Part shown: positions 15,301 to 31,230 of the stretch, piece by piece
How positions within the stretch are numbered: the stretch's first letter is position 1
How the letters are laid out: every line of letters begins with the position of its first letter
Source of the DNA: Catenulispora sp.
Lineage (GTDB): Bacteria > Actinomycetota > Actinomycetes > Streptomycetales > Catenulisporaceae
NCBI GenBank assembly: GCA_013361685.1
Contig: JABFXP010000861.1
Span: 1 to 36,707 of the forward strand
Direction of reading: 5' to 3'
DNA: 36,707 nucleotides
Notes under the pieces: model-generated
What the model saw: only the letters and a program-made list of their open reading frames with translations
Database searches by the model: none
What the model was told of the DNA's origin: nothing
Translations under genes and position numbers: made by a program

Positions 15301-18300
15301 CGTCGACGTGCGGGTTCCCGTCGTCCGGGTGCTGCATCAGGGGGCGCATCTGACCGCTGACGTCCTGGCGGGTCCAGGTCGGCTTGGCGCCGTCCAGCCC
15401 GGTGACGGCGAAGTGCTCGTCGTTCGCGAGCGGCCGGCCCTTCCGGTCCGTGATGGTGATGCGCTCGCCGGTCTTGATGCCGCGCGCGTCGAAGGTCTTG
15501 AAATCGTTGGGGTGAGCGGCGTTCAGTCCGAAGACCCGCAGTCCGCCGGTGTCGGGATCGCGCACGACCGGCAGTGGACGGCTCCCCGGCGCGGCGGGGA
15601 TGCGGACGTCCCGTCCGTGCGGAGCGAGGTGGTCCAGATGGACCTGCACGGTCTCGCCCTGCAAGGTGACCCGCTCATTGCGCACCGCACCGCTGACCCC
15701 GTCGAACTCGGCGAACGAGCCGTTGGGGCGCCCCGGACGCACATCGCTGAGGACGAAGTGCCCGTCGGCGGTCCGCGTGGCCTGGAAGCCGGGTACCTCG
15801 TGGCCGTCCCCGTCCACCACGGTGTGCGCTGTGTTCGGGTCCGCAGCGAGATGGTCGGTGCCGATGTGCACGTCGTGCAGTTCGCCGGTGACGGGATCGC
15901 GCGTGGTGAACAAGCTGAAGCGCAGTTCGTTGTAAGCGTTGAAGTGCAGGGTGTGCACCCCGTCGATGCTGGTGAGCACAAACCCGCCGCCACCGCCGGA
16001 TTCGTGGGCGAAGGTCCACTGCGTGTCCCGCGGCAGGCCCCCGTGACCGAAGATCGCTCTGTCGTCCTCGTGCAGCACGTGAACCGTGCCGAGCACGGCA
16101 CCGGTGCTCGCGTCCTCCACCTGGATCTGGTGCAGGACGAGCTCGTCGTCATCGTTGAAGTGCAGGACGTGTGTACCGTCCTGGCTGGTCAGGATGTAGC
16201 CCTCGTGCTGAGCGTCGTGCTGGAAGTGCCAGGTCTGATCCGGCAGGCCCGGGGCGCGGAAATCCGCCGTCCCCTGTGTGTAGTCCACGCGCACAGCGTT
16301 CAGGTCGCCGCCGCCGGGCAGCGAGGCGTGCAGCTCGGCGTGGGTGATGACGGTGCGCGTGGTCTGGTCGAGGACCTCGACGACGGTGCCGTCGCCCATC
16401 GGAATCAGGGTTCTGTTGCCGTCGTTGGCCACGCCGGTGTGCCGCACGCCGGTCCCGTCGGCCCCCACGAGGGTCACGCTGTGGGACTGCGGCGCCATCC
16501 GGACGTCGAACTCGATGTCGCCGAGCGCGTGCCCGTCCCAGTGGTGGAGCGGGTTTCCCCAGCCGGTCAGCCTGCCGCGGGCGTCGTACCCGGTCCACGC
16601 GGTGATCCCGGGCGTGTCCACGCCCAGGCGGAAACCACCGGAGCCGTCCGCGTCCGGGGTGAAGGTCCACGGCTCGTCGGTGCCGTCCGCATGATAGGTG
16701 TGCGCGGTCCCGCCGAGGTGGTCGATGTGGATGGCGATGGTCGGGTTCCCGAGGTGGTCCGTCAGTTCCAGCGGTTGGTAGGTCTGCGTACCGTGCGCGT
16801 CGAACTCCCAGGTGCGCCAGCCGGCTGACTCGGTGAGCCGGAATCCGCCGTCGTCCAGCGACTCCAGGTGCAGTCCCGTCACCTGTTCCCCGCCGGGCCG
16901 GCTGTACCGCACGGTTCCGTCCGAGTACCGGCCGTACTCGCCGATCAGGTTGCCGCGCACGTCGAAGACCTCGCGGCCGGCGACGACGACCGTCCCGTCG
17001 GCCGCATATCCGCGGAAGCTGCTGCGTGGATCCAGCGTGTCGATGCGGAACGCGCCGTTGTCGCCGATCGGGCTGAGGCTGCCGCCGAAGGTGGCCTCGC
17101 CGGTGCGGACGTCGACGACCTCGCCGAACGTGTGCCCCTCGGTGACGGTGATGACCAATTGCCGATTCGGCCCGAGGGGGTGGACGTCGACCAGCGCGCC
17201 GGGGTCGTCGGTGAACCGGCCCCGATTGGGGGTGAGCCTGCCGGACCAGTCGAACGTCCACTGCCGCCCGCCGGAGCCGGTGATTCGGAAGCCGCTCTCG
17301 CCGAGGTTCTCGAAGGGGAGGTCCGTCAGGACGGACTCGCCGAGCCGGCGCAGGTCGGCGGTTCCGTCGGCGTACACGACGATCTCGCCGAAGTGCGCAC
17401 CGGCCTGGTCGGCCAGAGCCAGGCCTTCGGCATGGACCGTCCCGTCCGGCAGGTACTCGCGGAAGGCGCCGTCGCCGTCGACCGAGTCGAGCCGGAAGCC
17501 GCCGTGCCACTCGGGCTCGGTGAGCCGGCCGCTGAAGGCGGTCTGACCGGTGTGGACGTCGACGATCTCGCCGAACTCGTGGCCCTGGCCGGCGTTGATG
17601 ACGAGCTGGTGGTCCGGGCCGAGCGGGCGGGTGGAGACGAGGGGGCGGCCGGTGGCCGGATCCACCGTGATCGCCTTGTCGCCCGGGCGGCTGCCGCCGA
17701 GCAGCTTCGGAGCGGTGTTCAGCTGGGCCGTCAGATGGCTGTGCTCCGTCAGGCCGAGTCGCAGCGGGTTGACGCCGAGGCCGTGTAGCTTCCCGGCTGC
17801 CGCGTTGAGCGCATGGGTGGCGACGTCGAGATTGTGTACGGCCGTGGCCTGCGCGTCCGTCTGCGGGGCCTTGCCGTTGAACGCCACCGAGGCCTGGCCA
17901 GGCTTCGGATCGGCGCCGGCGAACTGCACGTTGTGTTCGTTGAGCGCGGCACCGTGCTGGAACTGTGCCTGCTTGAAGTCGGTCCACGCCACGGCGACCC
18001 GCTCGGCGTTCGGGTCGAACAGGCCCGGCGCACCGGCGAGATCGGGTTCGGCGACGTGCACGCCCGGTGCGCCGGCCGAGTGCGCGGCGGCCTCGTCGAC
18101 GCCGGCGCTGGAGACGGTGGGGATGGAGGTTTCGGTGGGGATGGCGGTTTCGGTGTGCACCGTGGTTTCCGAGGCCTCGACCACGTTCGTCCGCGTGTGG
18201 ATCCCGGCGTCGGTGATGGTCACCTGGGCGCCGAGCTCGGGATTGTTCTGCAGGGTTCTGATCTCCACGGGCACGGTCTGGACGTGCTCCTCGGCCAGGT

Positions 18301-20443
18301 GCGGGGTCGCGAGATGCGGATTGCTCAGGCGAGGCACGTCGAGCGAGGGCGCGGACAGGTGCGGAGTCGCCGTGCCGAGTGAGGGCGTGGACAGATGGCT
18401 GAACGCGTCGGTGTGCGGCACGGCGCTGATCGAGGTTCCCGCCACGGTGTCGACGTGCACGGTGTCGGCCGGCAGCTGAGCGCTGGTGATCCTGAGGCCG
18501 GTGTCGGTGTGCTGGACGGCCAGCCCGTGCGACTCCGCAACGGTGATCTTGGTGTGCGCGACGGCGCCGAGATTGGGCATGTCCTGCGGTGACGGCAGGT
18601 GCGAGGCGGTCACACTCGTGAGGTCGACGGACTTCAGCTGAGGCAGGCTCAGGTCGGTGGTGTGCAGCGAGGGGACCGAGGTGCGCAGGCCGTCGGCCGG
18701 GACGTGCGTGCCGAGGGCGCCCGGATTCGGCACGCTCACCTGGTGCAGCGTGGGCACGCTCAGGTCGCCGCCGTGCAGGCCGGCGGTGGTCAGATCTCCG
18801 GTGTGCAGGGCCGGGACGTTCAGGTCGCCGGTGTGGATCGCCGGGACCGAAAGGTTCGCCCCGTGCAGTCCGTTCGCATTCAGACCGGTCAGGTTCGTGT
18901 CCACCGGCGGCACCGCCAGCTTGTCGTCACGCACCACCACGAGCGAGAGGTCGCTCATATGGACCACGGTCGTGCCGTTGCCGATGTTGTTGAGTTCCTT
19001 CGGGTAGCGCAGATCAGGGAGCTCCAGGCCGTTCAGGTGGAAGTTCCCGTTCGGGATGTGCGTGCTGATGGTCCCGATCTCCAGCGAACCGTGCTGGAAG
19101 CCCGCCGCCAGGTTGCCGATGGAGAGCGTGGGAGCCTCGAGGTGCAGGTCCAGCCCCGTCATGCCGATGTTGACGTCCACCTTCGGCAGCGAGGTCTGCA
19201 TCCCCTTGGCGATGTTCACGTCCATGGTCGAGATGCGGGGCACGTCGAGGTAGCTGAATCCGCCGAAGTGGTACGTGCCGGTCCCGATCCCTTTGAGGGC
19301 CAGCTTGTTGAGAACGGCGAGGTTGAGGGCCGGTTCGGCGGTGATGCCCAGGCCGCGCTCGACGAAGCCCAGCCGCAGCGCCGTGAGCAGGCCCAGCTTC
19401 TCCACCTCGACCGCGTCCACCGGCAGGACCAGGCTCAGGAAGGCGCCGGTCTTGATGTTGGTGACGATCTTGACGGCGCCGGAGGAGAACAGCTCGCCGA
19501 GCTTGACGGCGAACGCGGTGCCCGCGGTGATCGCCATGCTGGGCAGGTCCTTGATGCCGTTGAACACCCACAAGCCGGCCTTGAGCGCGAAGTTGCCGAT
19601 GTTGATCAGCGTGTCCAGGGAGACCAGATCGGTCAGCCTGCCCACGGTGAGCAGGTCGATGAACTCGTTCAGTCCCGCCCGGACGTTGAGGAAGCCGGTC
19701 TTGATGAACGAGCCGATGCCCTTGACCACGTCCACGATGTCGCCCAGGCTCAGGGCCCGGGTGGTCGGGGCGAGGATGCCGAGCGCGGCCAGCAGCAGGC
19801 CGCCGATGCTCAGGTTGCCCTGCGCGAACTCGACCAGGGCGTTGACGAACAGGATGGCGTTGACGACGAACTCGACCAGCGCGATCACCCCGCCGAAGAT
19901 CATCGCCGGCAGGATCAGCAGCAGCGCGATCCAGCCGAGGATCTTCAGGAACTCCTCCCACGGACTGAGCGGATCCGACGGTCCCGGCAGGTTCTGGATG
20001 ACCTTGACCGCGGTGTCCGAGGCGGTCCCCAGATCGGTCCCGGCCTGCTTGGCCTGCGAGGCCCAGCCCTTGACCTTGGGATCGTCGGGCTTGAGGCCGG
20101 AGTTCTGAGCCTGGGTCAGCAGGTTGTCGGCGGTCGCCTGGTGCTGGGTCATGGCGCTGAGATACGTCTTGAGCGCCGGGGCGGCCTGGCTGAAGGCCTC
20201 CTGCGCGCTCTGCACGAACTTGGTGATCCGGCCGTTCATCTGCTGCCGCAGCGCGTCGGCGGTGGCACCGGCGAGATTGCCGGAGTCGGCGTAGCCGTTG
20301 ACCGTGTTGATGGTGTCCAGAATCGTCTGGTAGTCGGTGGCCAGGGTGTTGAGCAGGGTGTAGACGTCCTGCACCTGGGACTGCTCGCCGGGGGTCGGGT
20401 CGGCGGTCAGGCCCAGGGCGGACCAGTCGGTCGGCCGCGTCAT
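12395..20443 (-). CDS. Giant putative T7SS-secreted polymorphic protein (2682 aa)
   Basis: The N terminus (TRPTDWSALGLTADPTPGE, then about 120 residues of helices) matches the helical T7SS-targeting start of large actinobacterial secreted proteins, which share a DW-x6-DPTPGD-like motif. Residues about 160-205 form a hydrophobic pair of helices. Then come an Asp/Leu/His-rich repeat zone (about 510-630, units like LHTGDLNVPA), an ETxIPT repeat (about residue 760-775), and about 1300 residues of beta-rich DGT-type repeats (about 930-2250). The latter include two adjacent ~150-residue copies starting LVSTRPLG and LVDVHPLG. The last ~240 residues contain Gly/Ala-rich hydrophobic helices but no nuclease, deaminase or other toxin motif that I recognise. 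ATG 20443 (after GAGGA) is preferred over GTG 20446. It lies 43 bases downstream of the AAA ATPase gene. No obvious immunity gene follows. Confidence 0.75.
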   Translation of the reverse strand: MTRPTDWSALGLTADPTPGEQSQVQDVYTLLNTLATDYQTILDTINTVNGYADSGNLAGATADALRQQMNGRITKFVQSAQEAFSQAAPALKTYLSAMTQHQATADNLLTQAQNSGLKPDDPKVKGWASQAKQAGTDLGTASDTAVKVIQNLPGPSDPLSPWEEFLKILGWIALLLILPAMIFGGVIALVEFVVNAILFVNALVEFAQGNLSIGGLLLAALGILAPTTRALSLGDIVDVVKGIGSFIKTGFLNVRAGLNEFIDLLTVGRLTDLVSLDTLINIGNFALKAGLWVFNGIKDLPSMAITAGTAFAVKLGELFSSGAVKIVTNIKTGAFLSLVLPVDAVEVEKLGLLTALRLGFVERGLGITAEPALNLAVLNKLALKGIGTGTYHFGGFSYLDVPRISTMDVNIAKGMQTSLPKVDVNIGMTGLDLHLEAPTLSIGNLAAGFQHGSLEIGTISTHIPNGNFHLNGLELPDLRYPKELNNIGNGTTVVHMSDLSLVVVRDDKLAVPPVDTNLTGLNANGLHGANLSVPAIHTGDLNVPALHTGDLTTAGLHGGDLSVPTLHQVSVPNPGALGTHVPADGLRTSVPSLHTTDLSLPQLKSVDLTSVTASHLPSPQDMPNLGAVAHTKITVAESHGLAVQHTDTGLRITSAQLPADTVHVDTVAGTSISAVPHTDAFSHLSTPSLGTATPHLSAPSLDVPRLSNPHLATPHLAEEHVQTVPVEIRTLQNNPELGAQVTITDAGIHTRTNVVEASETTVHTETAIPTETSIPTVSSAGVDEAAAHSAGAPGVHVAEPDLAGAPGLFDPNAERVAVAWTDFKQAQFQHGAALNEHNVQFAGADPKPGQASVAFNGKAPQTDAQATAVHNLDVATHALNAAAGKLHGLGVNPLRLGLTEHSHLTAQLNTAPKLLGGSRPGDKAITVDPATGRPLVSTRPLGPDHQLVINAGQGHEFGEIVDVHTGQTAFSGRLTEPEWHGGFRLDSVDGDGAFREYLPDGTVHAEGLALADQAGAHFGEIVVYADGTADLRRLGESVLTDLPFENLGESGFRITGSGGRQWTFDWSGRLTPNRGRFTDDPGALVDVHPLGPNRQLVITVTEGHTFGEVVDVRTGEATFGGSLSPIGDNGAFRIDTLDPRSSFRGYAADGTVVVAGREVFDVRGNLIGEYGRYSDGTVRYSRPGGEQVTGLHLESLDDGGFRLTESAGWRTWEFDAHGTQTYQPLELTDHLGNPTIAIHIDHLGGTAHTYHADGTDEPWTFTPDADGSGGFRLGVDTPGITAWTGYDARGRLTGWGNPLHHWDGHALGDIEFDVRMAPQSHSVTLVGADGTGVRHTGVANDGNRTLIPMGDGTVVEVLDQTTRTVITHAELHASLPGGGDLNAVRVDYTQGTADFRAPGLPDQTWHFQHDAQHEGYILTSQDGTHVLHFNDDDELVLHQIQVEDASTGAVLGTVHVLHEDDRAIFGHGGLPRDTQWTFAHESGGGGGFVLTSIDGVHTLHFNAYNELRFSLFTTRDPVTGELHDVHIGTDHLAADPNTAHTVVDGDGHEVPGFQATRTADGHFVLSDVRPGRPNGSFAEFDGVSGAVRNERVTLQGETVQVHLDHLAPHGRDVRIPAAPGSRPLPVVRDPDTGGLRVFGLNAAHPNDFKTFDARGIKTGERITITDRKGRPLANDEHFAVTGLDGAKPTWTRQDVSGQMRPLMQHPDDGNPHVDDARLSSGYNSSGPVEVRNDGTLVLVGEDMTPAFTREPLANGVTIRVLRLENGSRRWTTWDVHGNLTGSGIRRFSTEDGGTTFWDLDSLGRTIRHYRVALDGGLIRTEKIGDTGLRWTRFTKDGTVTGLGGIRERPLSGLVDNAFGWRDPFVRADSTTIDAQRYWGRYHLFSGDMHWRPFTHASHYREYKVSPVPNTSGAFRIDSSYKEVSAQGKDTGSLETLANGHTIEFTRYSEQRVPDFLWKTPANLPDGFSKVIAKSYLGSKWGAVDFPVHGVVFGDSRFQVFKWVEKDGRGALHSEGVRVVTPDGSFSDFAGDGLFVRGAIKLDNGHTVEIGRDPNNPGKWDTFQVGGGGSRPAQTLNWHQLGSDKKPVSPAGIRDFNGKQWRDTFTDAGGTTYVVRHTTPTGDVVHFTGETKPHLDTSGAFLGLDHSAGGDTRVSITRNTMGQIVERGDQWGRWDGTVTIHVVGRGDPRTGDWRWEDDHLGTGVRISGRNTPFKGSWDDSYADFRTTADGQHFQIRDFRALDKGTSLRAERLPDGTWVSGKYDFQGRPVDGTAAVREWKDHNGVVYQPRPGIFKKPRLADWRDVNSDGLVIRELIDGKVREYTNVAGGAHEWKEYDFGSVWRERKPLSGHPNLYLEKESFQKQWRVTNMNGELVRYRSITGSIWERNAFGQWKLVGSERESRGLFPSFNAFRGINRELREPNRIQFTAADEAVASVRGQWSKIAEKTVLDFLQDFVIDVGANIIITGAVDGWNFNGDQLGTIFAGGAIRSGVKAGYGIATETVLKNFRDGLRNLDGGKDFNRQPYNNDKHWDNEWAGNENPTRWRSGTFDYFVGNTAVPAFGSFIATLVTGSTFGFGKEGIVLHGGDLAAAAGLSMAGSAVGGLTFGAIKTLGHLGLSGRWFHQGGIGDISLQFGEKLAIDYLVNDLLAGASGLSGGNHAKTVTAGQEAANGGGSVDSSQGSG
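16780..17644 (-). repeat. Two adjacent ~150-residue repeats inside the giant protein
   Basis: Read on the minus strand, the copies begin near 17644 (LVSTRPLGPDHQLVI) and near 17195 (LVDVHPLGPNRQLVI). Each continues through EFGEIVD/TFGEVVD, a GxF-R-D block, a GTV block and a W-x-F-D block. The spacing is about 450 bases. The boundaries are approximate. Confidence 0.65.
18116..18169 (-). repeat. Three tandem 18-bp repeats in the giant-protein gene
   Basis: GGTGGGGATGGAGGTTTC, a near-identical second copy and a degenerate third lie at 18116-18133, 18134-18151 and 18152-18169. On the minus strand they encode a hexapeptide close to ETxIPT. The first two differ at one base, so the duplication is recent. 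Confidence 0.8.
18590..18900 (-). repeat. Decapeptide-like LH-GDL-VP repeats in the giant protein
   Basis: The minus strand encodes successive units such as LHGANLSVPA, IHTGDLNVPA, LHTGDLTTAG and LHGGDLSVPT, then looser copies to about 18600. The units are near 30 bases, and the regular Leu/Asp/His spacing suggests a beta solenoid or a stack of short strands. The boundaries are approximate. Confidence 0.7.
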
Positions 20444-20489
20444 CACGTCCTCGATTCCGGTCGGGTTGCGGCGGGCACGCCGGCGTCGC

Positions 20490-22361
20490 TCACTGGTCCG
20501 CGGGCTCGGAGGGTGGTTCGAGCGGCACGTCTTGGGGAAGCAACACCGTCAGATCCCGCATGGTCGGCTCGGCCAGCAGGGCGGTGCGCTGCGCATGCCG
20601 CTCGGTGAGGGTCTGGAACAGTTGCCGCGCCGAGCGCCCGTTGCCGAAGCCCGGCTCCCGGCACAGAGAGGCGAAGTGGCCCACGACCGCCGCGCGCGTT
20701 CCGGGACCGAGCTCGTAGCGATGCTCGGCCACCTGGTTGTCGACGATGTCGGCGAGTTGTTCGGCCGAGTAGTCCACGAACATCAGGGTCCTGGTGAAAC
20801 GGGAGGCCAGGCCGGGGTTGGAGTCGATGAAGCGCTGCATGTCGCCGGGGTATCCGGCCACGATGACCACGATCTCGTCGCGATGGTCCTCCATCAACTT
20901 GACCAGCGTCGCGACCGCCTCCTGGCCGAAGTCGTTGCCGCCGCCGAGCGGGGCCAGAGCGTAGGCCTCGTCGATGAACAGCACGCCGCCGAGCGCCTTG
21001 CGGAACACCGCCGTGGTCTTCGGCGCCGTGTGGCCGACGTACTCGCCGACCAGCATGCTGCGGTCGGCCTCGACCAGGTGCCCGCGCTCGATCATGCCGA
21101 GCGTGTGCAGGATCCTCCCGTAGAGCCGGGCCACGGTGGTCTTGCCGGTGCCCGGATTGCCCGCGAACACCAGGTGCCGGTTCGTCGGGGGCGGGGGCAG
21201 GCCGATCTCGATGCGCCGGCGCGCCAGCCGCATCACGTTGATCATCGCGGTCACGTCGCGTTTGACCGACTCCAGCCCGATCAGGTTGTCGAGTTCGGCG
21301 ATGAGCTCGTCCAGGGTGGTCGCCGTGTCCTGGCCGTCCCCTGCCGCCTCCTCGCGCCCGGGCGGCGGCAGGGTGGACACGGTCACGGCGCTCACCCGCA
21401 CGTCCGCCAGCCGCGGCGCGGCCGCCTCGGCGATGTCGAGATCCTGGTCGACGTCGTGGATGTGCAGCGCGCGCAGCACCGGATCGGCACGTTCACCGAC
21501 ATGGACCGCCGGGTACGCGGTGTGCGAGATCTCGCAGTCCTCGATCTCGCCGTGCGAGTCCTCGGCGAAGAAGACGCCGTTCTTCCCGGCACCGGTGACG
21601 ACCACCTCGCGCGCCTGGACGGTCGCGCCCGTCCACACCACCAGCCCGGTGCCCCCGGTCCCCTCGATCCGGCAGCGCTCGACGCGCGCGGTGGTGCCCG
21701 CGCCGATCAGTATTCCGGCCCGCTCGGTCTTCTCCACGGTGCAGCCGCTGAGCACGACCCGCCCGGCGGTCTGCGCGCTGATCCCGCTCAACCCGCTGTC
21801 CCGGACGGTGCCGCCGTCGATCCGCAGTGAGGATTCCTCCGTCGCCCGCACCCCGTGCTCGCGGCTGGAGAAGACGACGCAGTCCTCGAGCTCCAGGTCC
21901 GCCCGGCCGGCCAGATGCACGGCGCTGAAGGCGCTCTCGCCGACTTCGCAGCCGAGGAGCCGGGCGGTGGCGTTGCCGCCGAGGAACAGCCCGTTGCCGC
22001 TGACGCTGGTGATCTGACTGCGGTCGGCCGCCAGCCGGGCGTCGTCGCGCAGACCCACGCCGGTGGACGCGGCGCCGCGCACCACGCAGTCACTGAGCCG
22101 CAGCCGGACCGCACCCACGGCCAGCAGCCCGGCGCCCTCGATCGTCAGGCCGCGCAGCTCGGTGTCCGCGCGCACCGCGCAGGGCCGGTCCAGCTGGATC
22201 GTCACCGACCCCGGGCCGCCCGCGGCGACCAGGGTGACCGGCCGCGCGAAGGAGAGCTGCTCGCGGTAGCTGCCCCCGGGGATCTCGACGACCGCGCCGT
22301 CCGGAGCCGAGGAGAGCAGGCTCATCACGGAGCCGGTGTCCGGCGCTGTGCTTGCTGACAT
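20490..22361 (-). CDS. EccA-like AAA ATPase with N-terminal right-handed beta-helix
   Basis: A 623-residue cytoplasmic protein. Residues about 18-320 are parallel beta-helix (NosD/pectate-lyase-type) turns, seen as repeated xLxGCxVxxSxxxGI units. After a charged linker, residues about 340-623 form a CbxX/CfxQ-type AAA+ domain as in EccA: LDNLIGLESVKRDV, Walker A GNPGTGKTT (near residue 400), GEYVGHTAPKT, Walker B GVLFIDEAYAL, sensor-like VIVAGY and the NPGLASRF arginine-finger region. EccA proteins remodel or release T7SS substrates; the helix part may recruit them. ATG 22361 gives the short N terminus usual before APDGAVVEI; GTG 22397 is possible and neither has a strong ribosome-binding site. 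The giant-protein gene follows 43 bases downstream, so the two are probably co-transcribed. Confidence 0.88.
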   Translation of the reverse strand: MSASTAPDTGSVMSLLSSAPDGAVVEIPGGSYREQLSFARPVTLVAAGGPGSVTIQLDRPCAVRADTELRGLTIEGAGLLAVGAVRLRLSDCVVRGAASTGVGLRDDARLAADRSQITSVSGNGLFLGGNATARLLGCEVGESAFSAVHLAGRADLELEDCVVFSSREHGVRATEESSLRIDGGTVRDSGLSGISAQTAGRVVLSGCTVEKTERAGILIGAGTTARVERCRIEGTGGTGLVVWTGATVQAREVVVTGAGKNGVFFAEDSHGEIEDCEISHTAYPAVHVGERADPVLRALHIHDVDQDLDIAEAAAPRLADVRVSAVTVSTLPPPGREEAAGDGQDTATTLDELIAELDNLIGLESVKRDVTAMINVMRLARRRIEIGLPPPPTNRHLVFAGNPGTGKTTVARLYGRILHTLGMIERGHLVEADRSMLVGEYVGHTAPKTTAVFRKALGGVLFIDEAYALAPLGGGNDFGQEAVATLVKLMEDHRDEIVVIVAGYPGDMQRFIDSNPGLASRFTRTLMFVDYSAEQLADIVDNQVAEHRYELGPGTRAAVVGHFASLCREPGFGNGRSARQLFQTLTERHAQRTALLAEPTMRDLTVLLPQDVPLEPPSEPADQ

Positions 22362-22683
22362 GCCCAGGGTTACGGCTGGCGGGGCCGTGTCGTTCACGGG
22401 TTCGCCCGGCGAAGGCGGAGAACACGACCGGATCGCTTACCCACCGCCACGCGGCGCGGAGTGTCAACCGACATCGGATGAACTCTCGAAAAATAAGATA
22501 TCGCCGGGCATCGAATCACGGATGAATTTGTGGGTTCCTTCAGCCGAATGCCCGAGATCATCGCCGGAAACGCCCTTCACCTGCGCGTGCCCGCTAAAGC
22601 GCACGATGAAAGTCATGACTGTTTCAGCACCGAATTACGTTGTAGTTTCGAATCAAAGCACTGTCGCCGAGACGAGACGGACG
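22362..22683. promoter_or_regulatory. Divergent control region of the secretion island
   Basis: About 320 bases separate the leftward AAA/giant-protein operon from the rightward sigma-factor operon. Its middle (about 22480-22545) is clearly less GC-rich than the flanks. On the minus strand a perfect TTGACA (22468-22463) is a candidate -35 box for the AAA gene, but the -10 choice is weak. No gene is supported here; upstream in-frame starts for the sigma factor at 22606 and 22615 remain possible. Confidence 0.45.
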
Positions 22684-23256
22684 ATGACTTCTACATCGCC
22701 TGCCCCCTTTGTCCCGCACTTGACCGCCCACCGAATGCGCACCATCTACCGGCTCCACTCCGCCGCCTTGCTCAGTACTCTGCTGAACTGGACCTACGGG
22801 GACTGGCAGGCGGCCGAGGACCTGCTCCAGGAGACGATGGTGCGCGCCTGGCAGCACCTGGACACGCTCAACGCGGACCCGCGGACCCTGCGGCCCTGGC
22901 TGTTCACCGTCGCGCGCCGGATCGCGATCGACCGGTTCCGGGCCCGGGTGGCGCGGCCGCCGGAGACCGAGCCGGAGCCGCTGGAGGAGACCGCCGCGCC
23001 CGGTGAGCCGTTCGAGCGGCTGCTCGACCGGGCCACCGTGGTCAGTGCGTTGCGGGGGGTCGACGAGGTCCATCGCAAGGCTCTGATCCAGGTCTACCTC
23101 ATGGACCGCACCGTCCCGCAGGCGGCGGTGGCGCTCGGCGTGCCGGAAGGGACCGTCAAGTCCCGGATACACCACGGTCTGCGCGCCGCTCGGAAGGTGG
23201 TCGGCTGCGGGGACCGTTGTCGCGCCGAGGTCGAGTGCGGCGGCGCTTGCGCATGA
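22684..23256 (+). CDS. ECF RNA polymerase sigma factor with four-cysteine C-terminal tail
   Basis: A 190-residue extracytoplasmic-function sigma factor. Region 2 is clear (LLNWTYGDWQAAEDLLQETM, RAWQHL, PWLFTVARRIAIDRFR), then an acidic linker, then region 4 (HRKALIQVYLMDRTVPQAA, LGVPEGTVKSRIHHGLRAARK). The last 16 residues carry four Cys spaced C-x3-C-x5-C-x3-C (codons at 23206, 23218, 23236, 23248), a pattern suited to binding a metal or sensing redox. No anti-sigma gene adjoins it. ATG 22684 is chosen by family length; ATG 22615 or 22606 would add about 25 residues. It starts the rightward operon of the secretion island and is divergent from the AAA gene, so it may drive both. Confidence 0.85.
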   Translation: MTSTSPAPFVPHLTAHRMRTIYRLHSAALLSTLLNWTYGDWQAAEDLLQETMVRAWQHLDTLNADPRTLRPWLFTVARRIAIDRFRARVARPPETEPEPLEETAAPGEPFERLLDRATVVSALRGVDEVHRKALIQVYLMDRTVPQAAVALGVPEGTVKSRIHHGLRAARKVVGCGDRCRAEVECGGACA

Positions 23257-24290: not shown

Positions 24291-24614
24291 ATGGGCACGC
24301 CCGACATCGGCATCAACTACGAGGACATCACGACGGCCTCGACCCTGCTGAACACCGCGGCCAACGACACGATCGCCCCGGAGCTCACGACGCTGTACAA
24401 CAGCGTGCACACCCTGCTGCAGAACGGCGGCGGCCTGTACATGATCCAGACCAGCCCGGCCATCCAGGCCCAGTACGACCAGTTCAACACCTCCGCCCTG
24501 CAGTGCGTCGACGCCATCCGGAGCTTCGCGAAGATGTTCGGCGACCTCGTGACGAACCTGCAGTCGATGGACGGCAAGCTGGCCTACAACATCACCCACC
24601 CCTCCAGCAGCTGA
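24291..24614 (+). CDS. Small WXG100-like protein
   Basis: A 107-residue protein with the length and two-helix hairpin expected of the WXG100 family. Helix one covers DITTASTLLNTAAND through LYNSVHTLL, a Gly-rich turn QNGGGLYMIQ sits where W-x-G would be, and helix two runs through AQYDQFNTSALQCVDAIRSF to NLQSMDGKL. The Trp is missing, which is known for some family members. No signal peptide and no clear C-terminal YxxxD/E are present. ATG 24291 has an AGAAAGCGAG purine stretch upstream. It probably pairs with the 302-residue protein before it for export. The kinase gene begins only one base after its stop, indicating translational coupling. Confidence 0.75.
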   Translation: MGTPDIGINYEDITTASTLLNTAANDTIAPELTTLYNSVHTLLQNGGGLYMIQTSPAIQAQYDQFNTSALQCVDAIRSFAKMFGDLVTNLQSMDGKLAYNITHPSSS

Positions 24615-24615
24615 C

Positions 24616-26757
24616 ATGCCGGCCGACCCGTCGTCCGTCTTCGACGACCTGGGGACGGCCCTGGGCGTGACCGAACTCGTGCCGCTGGCGCAGGGCGGGC
24701 AGAAATTCGTGCTGCGCGCCCTGCGCCAGGGCCGCCCGGTCGCGGTCAAGGCCATGCTCGTACCGCCGGGCCCGCTCTACGCCGCGGCCCTGGAGCGAGC
24801 CCGGCGGGAGACCCGCGTGCTCGCCGCCGTCGACTCGCCACGCCTGGTCCGCCTGCTCGGCGAGATGCGGGAGCTGAGATACCAGGGCGTCGTGCCGTAC
24901 GGCCTGGCGTGGACCGAGGAACTGCTCGACGGCAGCGACCTGGAGGAGCTGCTCGGCAGCCCGTGGCGCCCCGCCGAAGCGGCCCGGCTGCTCGTCCACC
25001 TCGCCGAGGCGCTCGCCGCGCTGCACGCCGAAGGCATCGTCCACCGCGACCTGAACCCGGGCAACGTCCGGCGCCGAGCCGACGGCGGCTACTGCCTGAT
25101 GGACCCGGGGCTGGCCCGTTTCCTGACCGACGAGGACCCGGCCGACGCGCACTGCATCGGCACGGTCGGCTACCTCAGCCCGGAACACGTGCCGGGCGGC
25201 GCCGTCGGTCCGCCGAGCGATGTCTACTGTCTCGGCATCCTGATTCACCAGGCCCTGACGGCCGAACTCCCGACGGCGCCCGATGCCGCGCCGCCGCCGG
25301 AGACGCCGGCCGCCCTGACCCGGATCATCGACCGCTGCCTGCGCCTGAAACCGGCAGAGCGCTTCGCGGACGGAGGCGAGCTCCTGGCCGAGCTCGCACG
25401 ACACCCTGATCTCCGCGAATCAGCCTTCGACGACGATTCCGCGCCTGATGATCCGCCGACCGCGCTGGAGGATCTGGGATACGCCCGGTGCGGCGAGGAG
25501 GTCGTCGAGGTACGCGGCGCGTTCGGCACGCGACGCGTGGAGGTCGAGTCGCTGGCCAAGGATCAGGAGCCGTTCGCCGTCCGGCTCCAGCCGTGCGAGC
25601 TGGAGATCGCCTCCGGTGTCACCTTCGCCGCCCGGACCGTGGAGCTCGGCGACGGCCGCTTCACGAACCTGTACGAGCTCGCCGTGGACACGCGCCGGGC
25701 GCGGGTCGGTGTGACCGGCGGCGGCGAAGGCTTCCACCTGCCGCACCTGCTCGCTGAACCAGCGGTGATCGCGGCCGTCAGCGGGTCGTTCTCGTTCATC
25801 TCCGATGATGCCGACTACGAACCCGCAGAGTTCTGCCTCGACTTCTGTGCCCGCGACGGCATGACGGTATCCCTGCCGACCGTCGGCAAGCCCGCATTCA
25901 CCGTCGGCCGCGACGGCCTGCGCCTGGCTGAGCTGGATGCCCGGGGCACGCTGCGCATCGGCGACCGCCGCCACGACTGGATCGGTTCCAAGGTGCGCGC
26001 GTCGCCGGCGGACGCTTCAAGCCTGGTCGTGTATGGCGCGGCCAACTGCCGGGTGCGGTACTCCGAGGCCGAGCGGGTGGCGCTGCTGCGCGGCGTGGAT
26101 CGCGCGGCGAACCGTACGCCGGCCGGGGGCGGCGACGTCGTCGATCTCGTGGTCGCCCGTCGAGACACCGGACACGTCGTCACGGCGGTCCACCGAGGCG
26201 GGGGCGTGGATCTGTTCGAGGGATCCTTCGTCTTGCGGGGCCGCACCGGAACGGTGGGCGGCGTGCGCCCCGGCGACGAGGTGGAGATCCGATCCGTGGG
26301 CGGCGTGGCCGCCGCCGGCATCGAGTCGGGATTCTCCGTCGGCCCGAGCGTGGCCGCGGCCGCCCGGGCCGACCGCCTCGAAGGGTACGACGAGTCGCTC
26401 GGCCTGTCCCCGTTCCTGCCCGGCGCCCGCTATGCGCGGACCCTGATCTGCCTCACCGGCGACCTGCTGCGCCTGCGGGTGCTCGACGGCGCGCCGCTCA
26501 CCCGAGGCTTCCAAGGCTTGTCCTGCTCCGAGACGGCCCGCTTGGTCCAGGCGGACGGCCTGGACCCGGAAGCCGTCTACCATCTCGACGGGGGCCAGTC
26601 CGCCAAGCTCGCGTTCCGCCGCCGCGACGGCGCCGAGGTCGTGCTCGGCAGCATGCACTATCTGCTGTGGCCGAAGCAGGACGCGGGCGCGTTCCACTGG
26701 CAGGGCCGCGAAGGCCGCCTGCTTCGCAGCGCCCTGGCCGTCCGGGTGGACGGTTGA
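24616..26757 (+). CDS. Ser/Thr kinase fused to phosphodiester-glycosidase (NAGPA-like) domain
   Basis: A 713-residue protein with two enzyme-like halves. Residues 1 to about 265 form a Hanks-type kinase: a degenerate glycine loop (LAQGGQKFVL), K45 in VAVKAM, a helix C Glu in RRETRVL, HRDLNPGN (D145, N150), DPG in place of DFG (D163), GTVGYLSPEH and SDVYCLGIL. All phosphotransfer residues are present. Residues about 300-713 match the phosphodiester glycosidase family (NAGPA, PF09992), with RYARTLI for the usual PRT block, LSCSETARLV and Y-HLDGGQSAKL (D658) for the usual LDGGGSTTM. No signal peptide or membrane helix is visible, though NAGPA domains are normally exported. It starts one base after the WXG100-like gene and ends three bases from the convergent EccC-type gene. 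Confidence 0.78.
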   Translation: MPADPSSVFDDLGTALGVTELVPLAQGGQKFVLRALRQGRPVAVKAMLVPPGPLYAAALERARRETRVLAAVDSPRLVRLLGEMRELRYQGVVPYGLAWTEELLDGSDLEELLGSPWRPAEAARLLVHLAEALAALHAEGIVHRDLNPGNVRRRADGGYCLMDPGLARFLTDEDPADAHCIGTVGYLSPEHVPGGAVGPPSDVYCLGILIHQALTAELPTAPDAAPPPETPAALTRIIDRCLRLKPAERFADGGELLAELARHPDLRESAFDDDSAPDDPPTALEDLGYARCGEEVVEVRGAFGTRRVEVESLAKDQEPFAVRLQPCELEIASGVTFAARTVELGDGRFTNLYELAVDTRRARVGVTGGGEGFHLPHLLAEPAVIAAVSGSFSFISDDADYEPAEFCLDFCARDGMTVSLPTVGKPAFTVGRDGLRLAELDARGTLRIGDRRHDWIGSKVRASPADASSLVVYGAANCRVRYSEAERVALLRGVDRAANRTPAGGGDVVDLVVARRDTGHVVTAVHRGGGVDLFEGSFVLRGRTGTVGGVRPGDEVEIRSVGGVAAAGIESGFSVGPSVAAAARADRLEGYDESLGLSPFLPGARYARTLICLTGDLLRLRVLDGAPLTRGFQGLSCSETARLVQADGLDPEAVYHLDGGQSAKLAFRRRDGAEVVLGSMHYLLWPKQDAGAFHWQGREGRLLRSALAVRVDG

Positions 26758-26760
26758 GGC

Positions 26761-29700
26761 TCACCGAGCGGCGCCGCTGCTCTCCTTCAACTCGGTCAGG
26801 GGCAACGCCACAGCCACCGCCGCACCGGTGGCCGGATCGGCGACATAGCCGCGGCCCAGCTTCAAGGGCCGACGGACGAGTTCCATCGGCAGGCGGGCAC
26901 CGGCCAGGTCGCCCTCGTTCATCGTCCGCGGGTGCAGGAGCACACCCTGGCGGGCCCGTTTCGCCTCGCCGATCCACGAGACCGGGTTCTGCAGCAGCGC
27001 CTCCGCCGAGCCCGCGCAGGCCAGCCCGATCCCGCGGTCCCGGCCGGTCCTGAGGATCATCCGCAGCGTCGGGTCCACGTTCAGAGCGTTGACCAGCAGG
27101 TCCACGTCGTCGATCAGCACCACGCACGGCGATCCGAGTTCGGCCAGCGCCTCCTCGATCTCCCGGCCGTCGGGCTGCGCCGAGGTCAGGACTCTTACGT
27201 TCGGGTCGGCGGCCAGCCGGCGCAGCGGCGATTCGCGCGGCGTCAGTATCAGCAGTCTGGTGTGTGCGGCGAGCAGCGAGATGGCCAGGGTGGCCAGGGT
27301 GTTCGACCGGCCGCTGCCGCTGGGTCCGGCCACCATGAAGGCGTATCCGCGACCGGCGAAGTCCACGGTGACCGGGCCCGTTTCGTCGGCGCCGATGCCG
27401 AGCAGGGCGACCAGCGGCCTGGCCTCGGTGAGCAAGCCGTAGGCCTGGCTGAAGTCGATCCCGATCGGCAGCTTACCGACGGTGAGAGGTCGGTTCGCGG
27501 CCAAGGTTCCGGCGTCGCGTTGCGCGGCGGTGCGGCCGATCCGGCGCAGCGCCTCGGCCTGCGCCTGGCCCGATGGATCCGCGGTGAGCAACGCCATCTG
27601 CATCTCGGCCAGGTGCCCGGACTGCCAGCCGCGGCCCGGCGGCACGCGGGTCGGCAGGCCGTTGGCCTTCAGGCCGATGAGCATGAAGTCGTTGCGGTCG
27701 TTCATCCGCAGCATCAGCCGATTTTCGATCAGATGGCCCACCCGGCCGTTGGCCAGGCCCCGGTCGCCGGCGAGCAGGACGTGCACGCCGCCGGCCGCCC
27801 CCTCCCGCAGCAGGCGGTACAGCTCGTCGAGCAGCCGCCCGTTCTCATGCTCGCCGATCGTCTCGTACAGGGACTCCCAGCCGTCGGTGAACAGGAACAG
27901 GTGCCCGGGACGCGGCCCCGGCGGCAACGCGGCCCGCAACTCCGTCAGGTTGTTGCTGTGGTGCTCGGCCAGCAGCTCCTGGCGCCGGGTCAGCTCGGCG
28001 GACAGCCGCGTCAGCAGCCGGTCGAGCCGTTCGATGTCGTTGCGGCCGACCACGGCTCCGGTGTGCGGCAACGCTTCGAGCACCGCCAGGCCGCCGCCGG
28101 CCGCGTCGATGCCGTACATGTGCACCTCGGCGGTCGTGTACCGGTCCGCCAGGACGCCCGCCACCGTGCGCAGCGCCTGCGTGCGCCCGGACCGGGCCGT
28201 GCCGATGACCGCCAGGTGGGTGAACGTGTGCAGGTCGAGCAGCACGGGGCGCTGCTCCTGGAGCATCGGAAGGTCCTCGATCCCGATGGCGACCGGCGGG
28301 AGCTCGCCACGGCCGTCCGACGCGCCGGCGATGCCCGCCGCGGGCAGCTCGGCGAGCGTGATCCGCTCCGGCAGCGGCGTCAGCCACGGTCGCGGCTGCG
28401 GCTCGATCTCCAGATCCTCAGCGGCCCGGCGCATCGCCTGGACCAGGATGGACAGGTCCGTCTCCGCTTGTCCCGGCGCCCGGGGGTCCGCCGCGGGTAC
28501 GGCGATCGGCAGGTCGTCGGGGCGCCCGAGCCCCAGCCACGGCAGTTCGACCGCGGCGGCGGGCGTCGCCGGGGCCTGAGCCGTGAAGTACGGTGCGCCG
28601 GTGTAGGCCGCCTGGAACGCCGCGACGGAACGGTGCGAAAGCCGCACCAGCGCGCGGCCCGGCACGGTGGTCGGGATCAGCGCGGCGTCGCCGGTGTCGA
28701 TGACGTCCTTGCTCTCGGTCGGATCGAGCACCCGCAGGGCGATCCTCAGGTTCGTATTGGCCTTGATGTCCGCGCTGACCACGCCCGCCGGGCGCTGCGT
28801 GGCGAGCACCAGATGGATGCCGAGCGAACGGCCCCGCTGGGCGAGCGAGACCATTCCGGGGATGAAGTCGGGCACCTCGCGCACCAGCGTCGCGAACTCG
28901 TCCACGATCAGCATCAGGCGGGGCAGCGGCGGCATCGCCGGCTCCAGGCGGCGCCTGGCCAGGTAATCGGCCTGGTCCTTGCAACCGTGCCCGGCCAGCA
29001 GCCGCTCGCGGCGCCGCAGCTCCGCGGACAGCGACTCCAGCACCCGGCCGACCAGGTGCCCGTCGAGGTCGGTGACCATACCGAGGGCGTGGGGCAGGTG
29101 CACGCAGTCGCGGAAGGCCGAGCCGCCCTTGTAATCCACCAGCAGGAAGGTCAGCTCGTCCGGGCGGTTGGCCACCGCCAGCGAAGCGACCAGCGTCTGC
29201 AAAAGCTCTGATTTACCGGAGCCGGTGGTGCCCGCGATCAGTGCGTGCGGACCGTCCTGAACGAGGTCCACCGACAGCGGTCCGTCGTAGCCGGAACCGA
29301 GCAGAGCGACCGTCGAGGCAGGCTGGGCGAGCCAGCGGGCGGCGATGACATCGGCGTCCGGTGCGGCCAGATCGAGCAGTTCGGTGAGCCGGACCCGGTC
29401 CGGGAGCACGCTGCCCTCGTCGATCGTGGCGTCCCGCAGCGGGGCGAGCGCCCGGGCCACGTGCTCGAACCAATCCGGTTCGCACAGGTCCGGGCGGATC
29501 CCCGGGAACTCCGGCAGGCCGTCCTGGCGCAGCGTCAGCTGCTCGCCGTCGTCGACCACGACCGAGGTGGCCTCCTTCGGCAGCATCCGCAGCTCGCGGT
29601 CCACGCAGATGCTGAAGATGCGCATCCGCGGCCCGTCGGTCAGCAACTGCGTCAGGCCGGGAAGGTCGCGCATCCGGCGCGCGCCGTCCACCAGCACCAC

Positions 29701-31230
29701 CAGGTCGGGCTCGGTGAACACGGCCCGGCCCAGCGGCGACTGGGCGGCCTGTTCGCGCCGGGAAAGCGTGCCGGTCAGCTCCGAGAGCCGGTATCCGACG
29801 GTCTCCGGGTCGTTGCCGATCAGCAGCGCCGGGCCGAACGGCGAGCGCAGCTGCGGCAGCCAGCGCAGCCAGTCCCATTGCGCGGCCCGATCCGCATCGG
29901 TCAGCACGGCGACGCGCACCGCGTGCGGGCTGTGCAGCACCGCGATCTGTGCCAGGAGCCAGCCCGCCAGGGCCCTGATCCGCTCCGGCGGCCCGGCCAG
30001 GCCCACCACGCCGCGGTCGGCCAGCGCGAAGCCGACCGGAAGCCCCGGCACGTTCCAGCGCACCTTGTCGCGGAACTCCCCGCCGCGGTCGGGGTCGTCG
30101 ACCTCGATGATCGAGGGCTGATCAGCTGTGCCGACCCGCAGCACCAGGTAGTCGGCGTCGCGCCGCCGCCGCTCCCAGAGCTGGCGGCCCGGGCCGGTCG
30201 CGATGCGCCGCACCGCGGCCGGATCGGCGGCGATGCCGAGCCGCAGCACGCGTTCGGCTCGCACGTCGGCATCGATGGCGCGTTCGTTCTCGGTCTTCTG
30301 CCGGAAGTAGTCGGCCAGGTCGCGCTTGTGGTTCCGGCGGCCGTTGCGCCGCGCACTGATCCAGTTGGCCAGGCCGAAGACGGGGGAGAAGAACGCGAAC
30401 ATGCTGTAGAGGATGTTGTGGAACAGCACGGCCATCGTCAGACCCATGAAGGCCGGAGCGATCACGATGATCAGCGGGAACGGGTTGCGGCCGGGGAACC
30501 GGGGACGCGCCGGAATGCGGTGCTTGCGTTGCGGCACCGGTTCCACCATCCGCGGCGGCCGGTTGAAGTCCAGACCGACGCCGTCCTCGGTGGGCTGCAC
30601 GGAGGAGTCGTCGGCCGGTGCGGGCTGAACCCAGCGCAGCACCGTGTCCCGCACGAGCAGGTCGGCGTCGGCGGGCCACAGCCGGGATCCCGGCACACCG
30701 GCCGGTGGCGCGGGAACAGCGGCGGGTTCGGGCACCACCGGCTCGCCGCGGCGGCGCTTCGGCGGCGGCGCGGACTCGGGGGCGGCGACGGCGATCAACG
30801 AGGCGCCGTCCCCCAGCGATACGGACACGACTCCGTCCGGGTTCACGGTGATCTCTGCGGCCAGGGGCGCGGCTCCGGGGACCGGGATCGCGCAGTGGTC
30901 CGCCGAGCCGACCGTGTGCCGACCGGCGGCCAGGGGATGAACCGCCCCGGCGCCGAGCCCCGACACGGCGTGCAGCTCGAGCAAGGGCGGCGGTTCGGCG
31001 GGCACGGCCGGCCGGGCGGCGAAGGAGAGGTTCGCGCCCTCGTAGAGCCCGGCCTCGGCGAGCGTGGCCTCCGGATCGAATCGCCGGGATCCTTGGTAGA
31101 GCTCGGTCCCCGGCTCGTCCACGGCCTCTGCGATCGCGGCCGCCGTCTGCCCGAGTGGGGTGTCGGGTCCCGCGCCGATGAGTACGTGCCGCGGTGTGCT
31201 GCGGCCTTGGACGGTCACGGCGAATCGCAT
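26761..31230 (-). CDS. EccC/EssC-type T7SS FtsK/SpoIIIE ATPase with ubiquitin-like and FHA domains
   Basis: A 1489-residue motor of a T7SS-like system. Residues about 1-75 look like a ubiquitin fold (DPEATLAEAGLYEGANL ending). About 85-165 are an FHA domain (GRHTVGSADHCAI). GLDFNRPPRM leads into two membrane helices near 250-300. Three FtsK/SpoIIIE ATPase domains follow: D1 with canonical GTTGSGKS (near residue 670) and LMLIVDEFATL; D2 with GTARSGRT (near 1012); D3 with GPSGSGRS (near 1302). In D2 and D3 the Walker A Lys is Arg, so only D1 should hydrolyse ATP normally. ATG 31230 has AGGAAG nine bases upstream. FHA-bearing forms are usual in Firmicutes EssC and in a streptomycete-type class. 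The FHA domain could read phosphothreonine made by the neighbouring kinase. Confidence 0.92.
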   Translation of the reverse strand: MRFAVTVQGRSTPRHVLIGAGPDTPLGQTAAAIAEAVDEPGTELYQGSRRFDPEATLAEAGLYEGANLSFAARPAVPAEPPPLLELHAVSGLGAGAVHPLAAGRHTVGSADHCAIPVPGAAPLAAEITVNPDGVVSVSLGDGASLIAVAAPESAPPPKRRRGEPVVPEPAAVPAPPAGVPGSRLWPADADLLVRDTVLRWVQPAPADDSSVQPTEDGVGLDFNRPPRMVEPVPQRKHRIPARPRFPGRNPFPLIIVIAPAFMGLTMAVLFHNILYSMFAFFSPVFGLANWISARRNGRRNHKRDLADYFRQKTENERAIDADVRAERVLRLGIAADPAAVRRIATGPGRQLWERRRRDADYLVLRVGTADQPSIIEVDDPDRGGEFRDKVRWNVPGLPVGFALADRGVVGLAGPPERIRALAGWLLAQIAVLHSPHAVRVAVLTDADRAAQWDWLRWLPQLRSPFGPALLIGNDPETVGYRLSELTGTLSRREQAAQSPLGRAVFTEPDLVVLVDGARRMRDLPGLTQLLTDGPRMRIFSICVDRELRMLPKEATSVVVDDGEQLTLRQDGLPEFPGIRPDLCEPDWFEHVARALAPLRDATIDEGSVLPDRVRLTELLDLAAPDADVIAARWLAQPASTVALLGSGYDGPLSVDLVQDGPHALIAGTTGSGKSELLQTLVASLAVANRPDELTFLLVDYKGGSAFRDCVHLPHALGMVTDLDGHLVGRVLESLSAELRRRERLLAGHGCKDQADYLARRRLEPAMPPLPRLMLIVDEFATLVREVPDFIPGMVSLAQRGRSLGIHLVLATQRPAGVVSADIKANTNLRIALRVLDPTESKDVIDTGDAALIPTTVPGRALVRLSHRSVAAFQAAYTGAPYFTAQAPATPAAAVELPWLGLGRPDDLPIAVPAADPRAPGQAETDLSILVQAMRRAAEDLEIEPQPRPWLTPLPERITLAELPAAGIAGASDGRGELPPVAIGIEDLPMLQEQRPVLLDLHTFTHLAVIGTARSGRTQALRTVAGVLADRYTTAEVHMYGIDAAGGGLAVLEALPHTGAVVGRNDIERLDRLLTRLSAELTRRQELLAEHHSNNLTELRAALPPGPRPGHLFLFTDGWESLYETIGEHENGRLLDELYRLLREGAAGGVHVLLAGDRGLANGRVGHLIENRLMLRMNDRNDFMLIGLKANGLPTRVPPGRGWQSGHLAEMQMALLTADPSGQAQAEALRRIGRTAAQRDAGTLAANRPLTVGKLPIGIDFSQAYGLLTEARPLVALLGIGADETGPVTVDFAGRGYAFMVAGPSGSGRSNTLATLAISLLAAHTRLLILTPRESPLRRLAADPNVRVLTSAQPDGREIEEALAELGSPCVVLIDDVDLLVNALNVDPTLRMILRTGRDRGIGLACAGSAEALLQNPVSWIGEAKRARQGVLLHPRTMNEGDLAGARLPMELVRRPLKLGRGYVADPATGAAVAVALPLTELKESSGAAR

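What the first reader, a model, noticed from the sequence alone, without database searches (positions are those of the whole stretch)
24616..26757. Kinase fused to a phosphodiester-glycosidase domain inside a T7SS island
A complete Hanks-type kinase (K45, D145, N150, D163) is joined in frame to a NAGPA/PF09992-like domain whose LDGG-S motif (D658) and R-T block are visible. NAGPA domains are usually exported and cleave sugar-phosphate diesters, yet this fusion shows no signal peptide or membrane helix. It is coupled to a WXG100-like gene with a one-base gap. I infer that it attaches and trims a phosphate or sugar-phosphate mark on T7SS substrates or on the machinery. The pairing may represent an undescribed modification-demodification enzyme.
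Basis: partly seen in the sequence, partly recalled or inferred. Interest (0 to 1): 0.85.

Follow-up and report, generated by a model that had tools for sequence, protein, structure and literature searches.

The report
Kinase fused to intracellular phosphodiester-glycosidase-like domain
A soil actinobacterium carries one gene that joins a protein-kinase-like domain to a sugar-phosphate-cleaving enzyme domain of a usually exported family; the nearest relatives found of the second domain each sit beside or inside some kind of kinase gene, which suggests an uncharacterised two-step phosphate chemistry inside the cell.

Summary
Window 24616-26757 (+) is one 713-aa frame: a divergent Hanks-type kinase (PF00069 E=4e-22) fused to a NAGPA/PF09992-type domain. 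The window protein gives no PF09992 hit; of five homologues scanned one passes the cut-off and four fall just short. Profile-profile comparison gives 98.7% over 307 columns (window alone 96.4%; three unrelated profiles at most 0.75%). It starts one base after a weakly WXG100-like gene and converges on an eccC gene.

The fusion is rare but not a lone case: 3 of 14 family genomes, same locus, purifying selection. Four of seven related loci lack it, so it is an accessory of one locus lineage.

New here: the domain's nearest stand-alone relatives (7 plasmids, 1 genome), in 8 of 8, directly follow a phosphotransferase gene (APH family in 5 of 6 scanned) without detectable similarity to the fused kinase. 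So 11 of 11 near members found are kinase-linked, against 0 of 3 distant ones examined. I read it as a cytosolic kinase plus phosphodiester-glycosidase pair acting in sequence on a sugar-phosphate substrate. Action on T7SS proteins is untested. No structure could be predicted.

The parts
24616..26757 (+). Kinase-NAGPA-like fusion, 713 aa
   Evidence: Open frame; dN/dS 0.24-0.32 in both halves against two relatives (from dN and dS)
24616..25419 (+). Kinase domain (residues 1-268; Pfam match 31-221)
   Evidence: PF00069 E=4e-22; K45, E65, D145, N150, D163 invariant in 3 of 3 fusions
25525..26754 (+). NAGPA-like domain (about residues 304-713)
   Evidence: hhalign 98.7%, E=3.3e-16 (one-template comparison), 307 columns against 17 NAGPA proteins; 30 column shuffles at most score 20.6 against 126; start taken from the match to stand-alone P0003
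26437..26601 (+). Conserved motif block: R608-T609, D624-G625, E639, L657-D658-G659-G660-Q-S662
   Evidence: R, D-G, E and LDGG invariant and T nearly invariant in the 10 rows of A2; shared with canonical NAGPA
24291..24614 (+). Small WXG100-like gene, about 107 aa, one base upstream of the fusion
   Evidence: PF06013 14 bits, below cut-off; start inferred from homologues in L028, L086 and L087
23321..24229 (+). 302-aa Thr-rich gene of the same locus type
   Evidence: No Pfam family, TIGR03930 E=0.033, below cut-off; homologues at 7 places in 5 of 14 family genomes
26761..31230 (-). eccC-like FtsK/SpoIIIE ATPase, 1489 aa, convergent with the fusion
   Evidence: PF01580 E=6.5e-60, three stretches; 77-78% identical in the two other fusion loci, at most 59% elsewhere in the 14 family genomes
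20490..22397 (-). AAA+ ATPase with N-terminal right-handed beta-helix
   Evidence: PF13229 1e-24, PF00004 6e-16, PF17866 1.9e-12
12395..20446 (-). 2683-aa protein with a weak T7SS signal domain
   Evidence: PF21725 23.7 bits, cut-off 27

Best explanation
The gene makes one cytosolic, two-domain enzyme. The N-terminal domain is an active but atypical Hanks-type kinase that transfers phosphate from ATP. The C-terminal domain is an intracellular member of the NAGPA phosphodiester-glycosidase superfamily that breaks (or in reverse makes) a sugar-phosphate diester bond. The two act in sequence on one substrate or on neighbouring steps of one path, most likely a sugar or sugar-carrying small molecule. 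In Catenulispora/Actinospica-type bacteria the enzyme became an accessory of one lineage of T7SS locus. Shown: domains, conservation of catalytic-type residues, lack of a recognisable export signal, purifying selection, locus, and the second kinase pairing. Inferred: cytosolic location, activity, order of steps, substrate, and any effect on secretion.
For: Kinase PF00069 4e-22 with catalytic residues kept in 3 of 3 fusions. NAGPA superfamily by profile-profile: 98.7% over 307 columns; a set of 8 NAGPA rows all found by PF09992 gives 96.8%; window alone 96.4%; three unrelated profiles at most 0.75%; 30 shuffles at most score 20.6 against 126. One homologue passes the PF09992 cut-off and two miss it by under half a bit. 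The canonical proteins in turn match solved human NAGPA and 3ohg. No signal-like N-terminus in the fusion or in the 7 of 8 near stand-alone relatives checked. Purifying selection on both halves. A phosphotransferase gene lies directly upstream of the stand-alone domain in 8 of 8 near relatives (one has it fused to the oxidoreductase before it). It matches PF01636 (APH) in 5 of 6 members scanned, 37.7 bits against a cut-off of 23.2 for the Embleya one. It shows no detectable similarity to the fused kinase, so the partner differs while the kinase link stays; the fused kinase itself touches APH only below its cut-off (17.3 bits). The 11 kinase-linked rows stand apart from 3 unlinked ones at 100/100. 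HRDLNP lacks the Lys usual in Ser/Thr kinases (that rule is recalled).
Against: Only two settings show the pairing, and two of the eight operon rows are near copies. The tree does not resolve whether the operon rows are one clade (1 origin in 38% of bootstrap trees). The G220 phosphotransferase gave no Pfam match at E up to 10, and the profile A5 finds only chance matches among solved structures. The catalytic residues of NAGPA were not checked against a structure or paper. An Asn invariant in six canonical proteins (N114) is Ser in the window and most rows here, and LDGGGS is LDGGQS, so activity or chemistry may differ. Against three long NAGPA proteins (L043, L044, L052) hhalign gives only 13.3% over 55 columns. 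The G013 copy has a frame break inside the domain. The operon's PIG-L deacetylase is absent from the 3 fusion genomes. No substrate is known.
Confidence: 0.45

Rival explanations
1. The fusion modifies T7SS proteins: the kinase phosphorylates the Thr-rich 302-aa protein, the small WXG-like protein or EccC, and the NAGPA-like domain removes or uncovers a sugar-phosphate mark, so tuning secretion.
For: One-base gap to the WXG-like gene; same locus in 3 of 3 fusions. Phosphorylation of the WXG100 protein CFP10 by PknA is reported to regulate ESAT6 secretion (PMC10653824, abstract and outline seen).
Against: Four related loci have the same 302-aa/WXG-like/eccC genes without the fusion; by eye the Thr-rich protein is Thr-rich there too. 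Nearest stand-alone relatives of the domain lie in operons with no gene annotated as T7SS. A stretch of EccC that I read by eye as FHA-like lacks the usual phosphothreonine-binding residues; no tool named it FHA.
Confidence: 0.25
2. The C-terminal domain has lost catalysis and is a sugar- or sugar-phosphate-binding sensor that switches the kinase.
For: Changes at positions invariant in six canonical members: N114 to Ser, LDGGGS to LDGGQS, and a different C-terminal segment.
Against: R608, D624, E639 and D658 are invariant in 10 of 10 rows of A2; stand-alone members exist without a fused kinase.
Confidence: 0.2
3. The protein is a T7SS-exported effector, encoded directly behind its WXG-like partner, and the NAGPA-like domain works outside the cell as its relatives do.
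For: Position directly behind a WXG-like gene; the same slot holds other genes at two of four related loci.
Against: Pfam finds no T7SS signal domain in it; a kinase outside the cell would lack ATP (general knowledge); near stand-alone relatives lack signal-like N-termini and are not in annotated T7SS loci.
Confidence: 0.1

Closest known systems
NAGPA / DUF2233 superfamily (PF09992; [quoted passage not shown] 3ohg)
   Same: About 300 aligned columns including R-T, D-G, E and LDGG-S
   Different: No signal-like N-terminus, window protein not matched by Pfam, LDGGQS and different C-terminal segment, fused to or paired with a kinase
Hanks-type Ser/Thr kinases of actinobacteria (PF00069, PknB type)
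   Same: VAVK, alpha-C Glu, HRD...N, Asp of DFG
   Different: GGQK loop, HRDLNP, DPG; no PASTA part; NCBIfam PknB model 95.9 bits against cut-off 450
Plasmid operon of Streptomyces, Embleya and Kitasatospora with Gfo/Idh/MocA, phosphotransferase, NAGPA-like and PIG-L genes (no name found)
   Same: Same NAGPA-like branch, 42-48% identical in the seven near rows of A2, kinase-type partner directly upstream
   Different: APH-type partner instead of Hanks kinase, separate genes, metabolic neighbours, no annotated T7SS gene
Actinobacterial T7SS loci with eccC and WXG100 genes
   Same: EccC with three FtsK/SpoIIIE stretches, small partner gene
   Different: No eccB, eccD or mycP recognised among the 26 window frames scanned; fusion is an added gene

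Membership tests
NAGPA (PF09992) | Pfam match over the curated cut-off | tested here: not met
   No match for the window protein; of five homologues one passes (25.2 bits) and four miss (20.2 to 24.9), cut-off 25
NAGPA (PF09992) | Homology to recognised members by profile-profile comparison | tested here: met
   98.7%, E=3.3e-16, 307 columns; unrelated profiles at most 0.75%
NAGPA (PF09992) | LDGGGS, R-T and D-G motifs | tested here: inconclusive
   LDGG, R-T, D-G kept; third Gly is Gln, canonical Asn114 is Ser
NAGPA (PF09992) | Fold | not tested
   20 structure requests, each answered as busy
NAGPA (PF09992) | Exported (usual, not universal; recalled) | tested here: not met
   No signal-like N-terminus by hydropathy
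Hanks-type kinase (PF00069) | Pfam cut-off and catalytic K, D, N, D | tested here: met
   79.3 bits against 31.7; residues invariant in 3 fusions
Hanks-type kinase (PF00069) | Glycine-rich loop and catalytic-loop Lys (recalled rule) | tested here: not met
   GGQK and HRDLNP
T7SS locus | eccC-type ATPase | tested here: met
   PF01580 6.5e-60
T7SS locus | WXG100 protein over the cut-off | tested here: not met
   Small gene: PF06013 14 bits against 27.3; 302-aa gene: TIGR03930 14.4 against 44.85
APH phosphotransferase (operon partner) | PF01636 match | tested here: met
   5 of 6 members match at E up to 10; the Embleya one has 37.7 bits against 23.2; the G220 one has no match
PD-T4-6 anti-phage kinase | PADLOC match stronger than that of ordinary kinases | tested here: not met
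   124.6 bits; four ordinary kinases score 238.6 to 340.6 with their best PD-T4-6 model

The most novel reading that the evidence does not exclude
A bacterial intracellular counterpart of the mannose-6-phosphate tagging path: a kinase and a phosphodiester glycosidase in one protein write and uncover a phosphate or sugar-phosphate mark, used by one T7SS lineage, and a sister version with another kinase class works in a plasmid-borne biosynthetic path.
Probability: 0.15. Interest if true: 0.85.

Novelty: new variant of a known kind. Interest (0 to 1): 0.55.

Why it matters
Members of the NAGPA superfamily are best known as exported enzymes (recalled). A branch without export signals that is tied to a kinase in each of the 11 near members found, once by fusion and once by gene order with another kinase class, points to a coupled reaction that I did not find in the papers searched. 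It gives a compact, single-protein test case for bacterial sugar-phosphodiester chemistry and a clear test of whether any T7SS locus uses phosphorylation or sugar-phosphate marks.

Tried and rejected
Anti-phage kinase (PD-T4-6): the best match was 124.6 bits, but four ordinary actinobacterial kinases scored 238.6 to 340.6 with their best PD-T4-6 models, so the match is not specific and the reading was dropped.

Phage or viral origin: no match in the phage collection of 50,697 records; 50 pattern matches in viral contigs, none confirmed.

Direct search of solved structures with the domain or its profile A2: only chance matches. The same for the phosphotransferase profile A5.

Phosphothreonine reading by EccC: a stretch that I read by eye as FHA-like lacks the expected residues; the PDB search with that region gave only weak ubiquitin-like matches (best E=0.0083).

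Operon PIG-L deacetylase in the fusion genomes: 0 of 3, found in G220 only. So the fusion does not depend on that partner.

Search of 99 genomes with the whole fusion was uninformative for the kinase half: 99 of 99 match, because actinobacteria have many kinases.

Papers: searches. Searches returned no paper; others listed 20 of 22, 10 of 7,397 and 12 of 16. No listed title or abstract start reports a kinase-NAGPA fusion or pairing. Passages read: PMC11188070, a reference entry in PMC4000134, PMC12419801. Abstract and outline: PMC10653824. Das et al. 2013 on DUF2233 is not held and was not read.

Rows dropped or left out: L030, L031 and L032 (own-genome NAGPA hits, matching only up to profile position 137) were left out of the NAGPA alignments. 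L035 was found with A1, so the 17-row set is slightly circular; it does pass PF09992 at 106.3 bits, and the 8-row set without it gives 96.8%. A2 holds no G013, G473, G620 or L095 row. A4 used 6 of the 17. The first tree held a G013 piece that I cut in the wrong frame; it was replaced. The ninth plasmid record, NBC_00624, matches 72% of the query near its start (29.8%) and its neighbours were not examined.

Full report
The frame and its domains. The window frame 24616..26757 (+) encodes 713 aa. Pfam finds a protein kinase at residues 31-221 with E=4e-22. The C-terminal part gives no Pfam match, even at E up to 10. Five homologues scanned give PF09992 (NAGPA) at 20.2, 23.2, 24.9, 25.2 and 24.6 bits, cut-off 25. 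A ten-row profile of the domain (A2) compared with 17 actinobacterial NAGPA proteins gives 98.7%, E=3.3e-16 (a one-template comparison), 307 columns; an eight-row set found only by PF09992 gives 96.8%. Thirty column shuffles reach at most a score of 20.6 against 126, the reversed profile 17.9. The window sequence alone gives 96.4%; three unrelated profiles at most 0.75%. Against three long NAGPA proteins the score is weak, 13.3% over 55 columns. Canonical proteins match solved human NAGPA, 3ohg and 6ozd. So the domain is a diverged NAGPA-superfamily member. Its fold was not tested: the structure machine was busy in all 20 tries.

Residues. R608-T609, D624-G625, E639 and LDGG (D658) are shared with canonical members; apart from T609, which is nearly invariant, they are invariant in A2. 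The third Gly of LDGGGS is Gln, an Asn invariant in the six canonical proteins of A4 is Ser here, and the C-terminal segment differs. The kinase keeps K45, E65, D145, N150 and D163 in 3 of 3 fusions, but has GGQK, HRDLNP and DPG. That Ser/Thr kinases usually carry Lys in HRDLKP, and small-molecule kinases do not, is recalled knowledge.

How common is the fusion. The C-terminal domain is found in 3 of 14 genomes of the family, the window's own among them (in which 4 of 293 genomes of the order matched; the fourth is the stand-alone G220). Other draws, partly of the same genomes, gave 4 of 394 in the class (the window genome, two distant stand-alone homologues and one secreted canonical NAGPA, which passes PF09992 at 106.3 bits) and 1 of 396 in the phylum, the window genome; a search with the stand-alone G220 protein gave 3 of 394. 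A pattern scan of a collection of 84,980 species, which finds close relatives only, gave one, Actinospica acidithermotolerans. The window copy is intact. In G013 the kinase and the first half of the domain share one open frame, then the frame breaks; I cannot say whether that is real or a sequencing error. In Actinospica the gene is cut by two contig ends that share 16 bases; the reading frames of the two pieces agree there, so one gene is inferred, not shown. dN/dS is about 0.32 for the kinase and 0.24 for the NAGPA-like part against Actinospica, 0.29 for the G013 kinase and 0.32 for its 3' piece (ratios). No plasmid record holds the whole fusion: 0 of 26 matching records cover 80%.

The T7SS locus. 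The fusion starts one base after a small gene that resembles WXG100 proteins only below the cut-off. It converges on an eccC-like gene with three FtsK/SpoIIIE stretches. EccC is 77-78% identical in the other two fusion loci and at most 59% elsewhere in the 14 family genomes. Homologues of the 302-aa gene occur at 7 places: 3 fusion loci and 4 without the fusion. In two of the four nothing lies between the WXG-like gene and eccC; in one there is a weakly P-loop-like protein (best Pfam 19.4 bits, cut-off 27), in one an alpha/beta hydrolase (PF01738 35 bits, cut-off 21). So the place between the two genes looks like an accessory slot, and the fusion belongs to one locus lineage.

A second kinase pairing. 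A protein search of plasmids found nine records with the domain. In seven of them, and in genome G220, the stand-alone gene follows a Gfo/Idh/MocA oxidoreductase and a phosphotransferase, with a PIG-L deacetylase after it: 8 of 8 by tblastn with the Embleya proteins, Embleya being one of the eight. In G220 the deacetylase lies about 2 kb downstream. In NBC_01462 the phosphotransferase is fused to the oxidoreductase. The phosphotransferase matches APH (PF01636) in 5 of 6 members, the G220 one being the miss. It shows no detectable similarity to the fused Hanks kinase, though both may share the wider kinase fold. Three more distant homologues (L042, L090, L091) have no match to it in the stretches searched. 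On a tree the 11 kinase-linked rows stand apart from the 3 distant ones at 100/100, and the fusions form one group at 99/100 (the G013 row fills 49% of the columns, and two operon rows are near copies). Of the eight stand-alone proteins put through the hydropathy measure, seven near ones reach at most 0.79 in their first 60 residues and the distant L042 reaches 1.42.

How it most likely works. A kinase link that is kept across two kinase classes suggests that phosphate transfer and phosphodiester cleavage are consecutive steps. The operon neighbours (oxidoreductases, a RipC/CitE-like lyase, a BshB-like deacetylase, both below the curated cut-offs) suggest a sugar-carrying small molecule. I therefore prefer a cytosolic two-step phosphate chemistry on a sugar-phosphate substrate (0.45) over modification of T7SS proteins (0.25), a sensor role (0.2) or export as an effector (0.1). 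Precedent for the T7SS reading exists: CFP10 phosphorylation regulates ESAT6 secretion (PMC10653824, abstract).

Novelty. Both domains are known kinds; the architecture and the kinase-linked branch did not appear in the paper searches. That supports 'new variant of a known kind'. A same-genus genome has one contig of 10,467,782 bases, which matches my recollection of Catenulispora acidiphila; this is not a tool result.

Noticed in passing
L036-L041, L095 (plasmids), L029: A conserved plasmid operon of Streptomycetaceae: lyase, MaoC, GNAT, APH, Ldh-type and LLM oxidoreductases, Gfo/Idh/MocA, phosphotransferase, NAGPA-like, PIG-L deacetylase; product unknown. G220 holds the last four with a PKS-like gene nearby, read by eye.
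   Followed up: partly
L036:9401-11956: Oxidoreductase and phosphotransferase are fused in one protein in Streptomyces sp. NBC_01462.
   Followed up: yes
window 26761-31230 (-): EccC starts with a weak ubiquitin-like stretch followed by a stretch that I read by eye as FHA-like without phosphothreonine-binding residues.
   Followed up: partly
window 20490-22397 (-): AAA+ ATPase with an N-terminal right-handed beta-helix; a similar frame, read by eye, lies at the G013 locus.
   Followed up: no
window 12395-20446 (-): 2683-aa protein with a sub-threshold T7SS signal domain and repeated blocks; possible secreted substrate.
   Followed up: no
L086, L089: The slot between the WXG-like gene and eccC holds different genes in related loci: an alpha/beta hydrolase and a weakly P-loop-like protein.
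   Followed up: partly
L028 about 13449-13485: Frame break inside the NAGPA-like part of the G013 fusion, although the 3' part stays conserved.
   Followed up: partly
L042, L033: Two distant stand-alone homologues lie next to a convergent HD-domain-type gene (annotated in L042, read by eye in L033).
   Followed up: no
window 22336-23256 (+): Sigma-70 family (ECF-like) gene upstream of the 302-aa gene; one also at the G013 locus.
   Followed up: no
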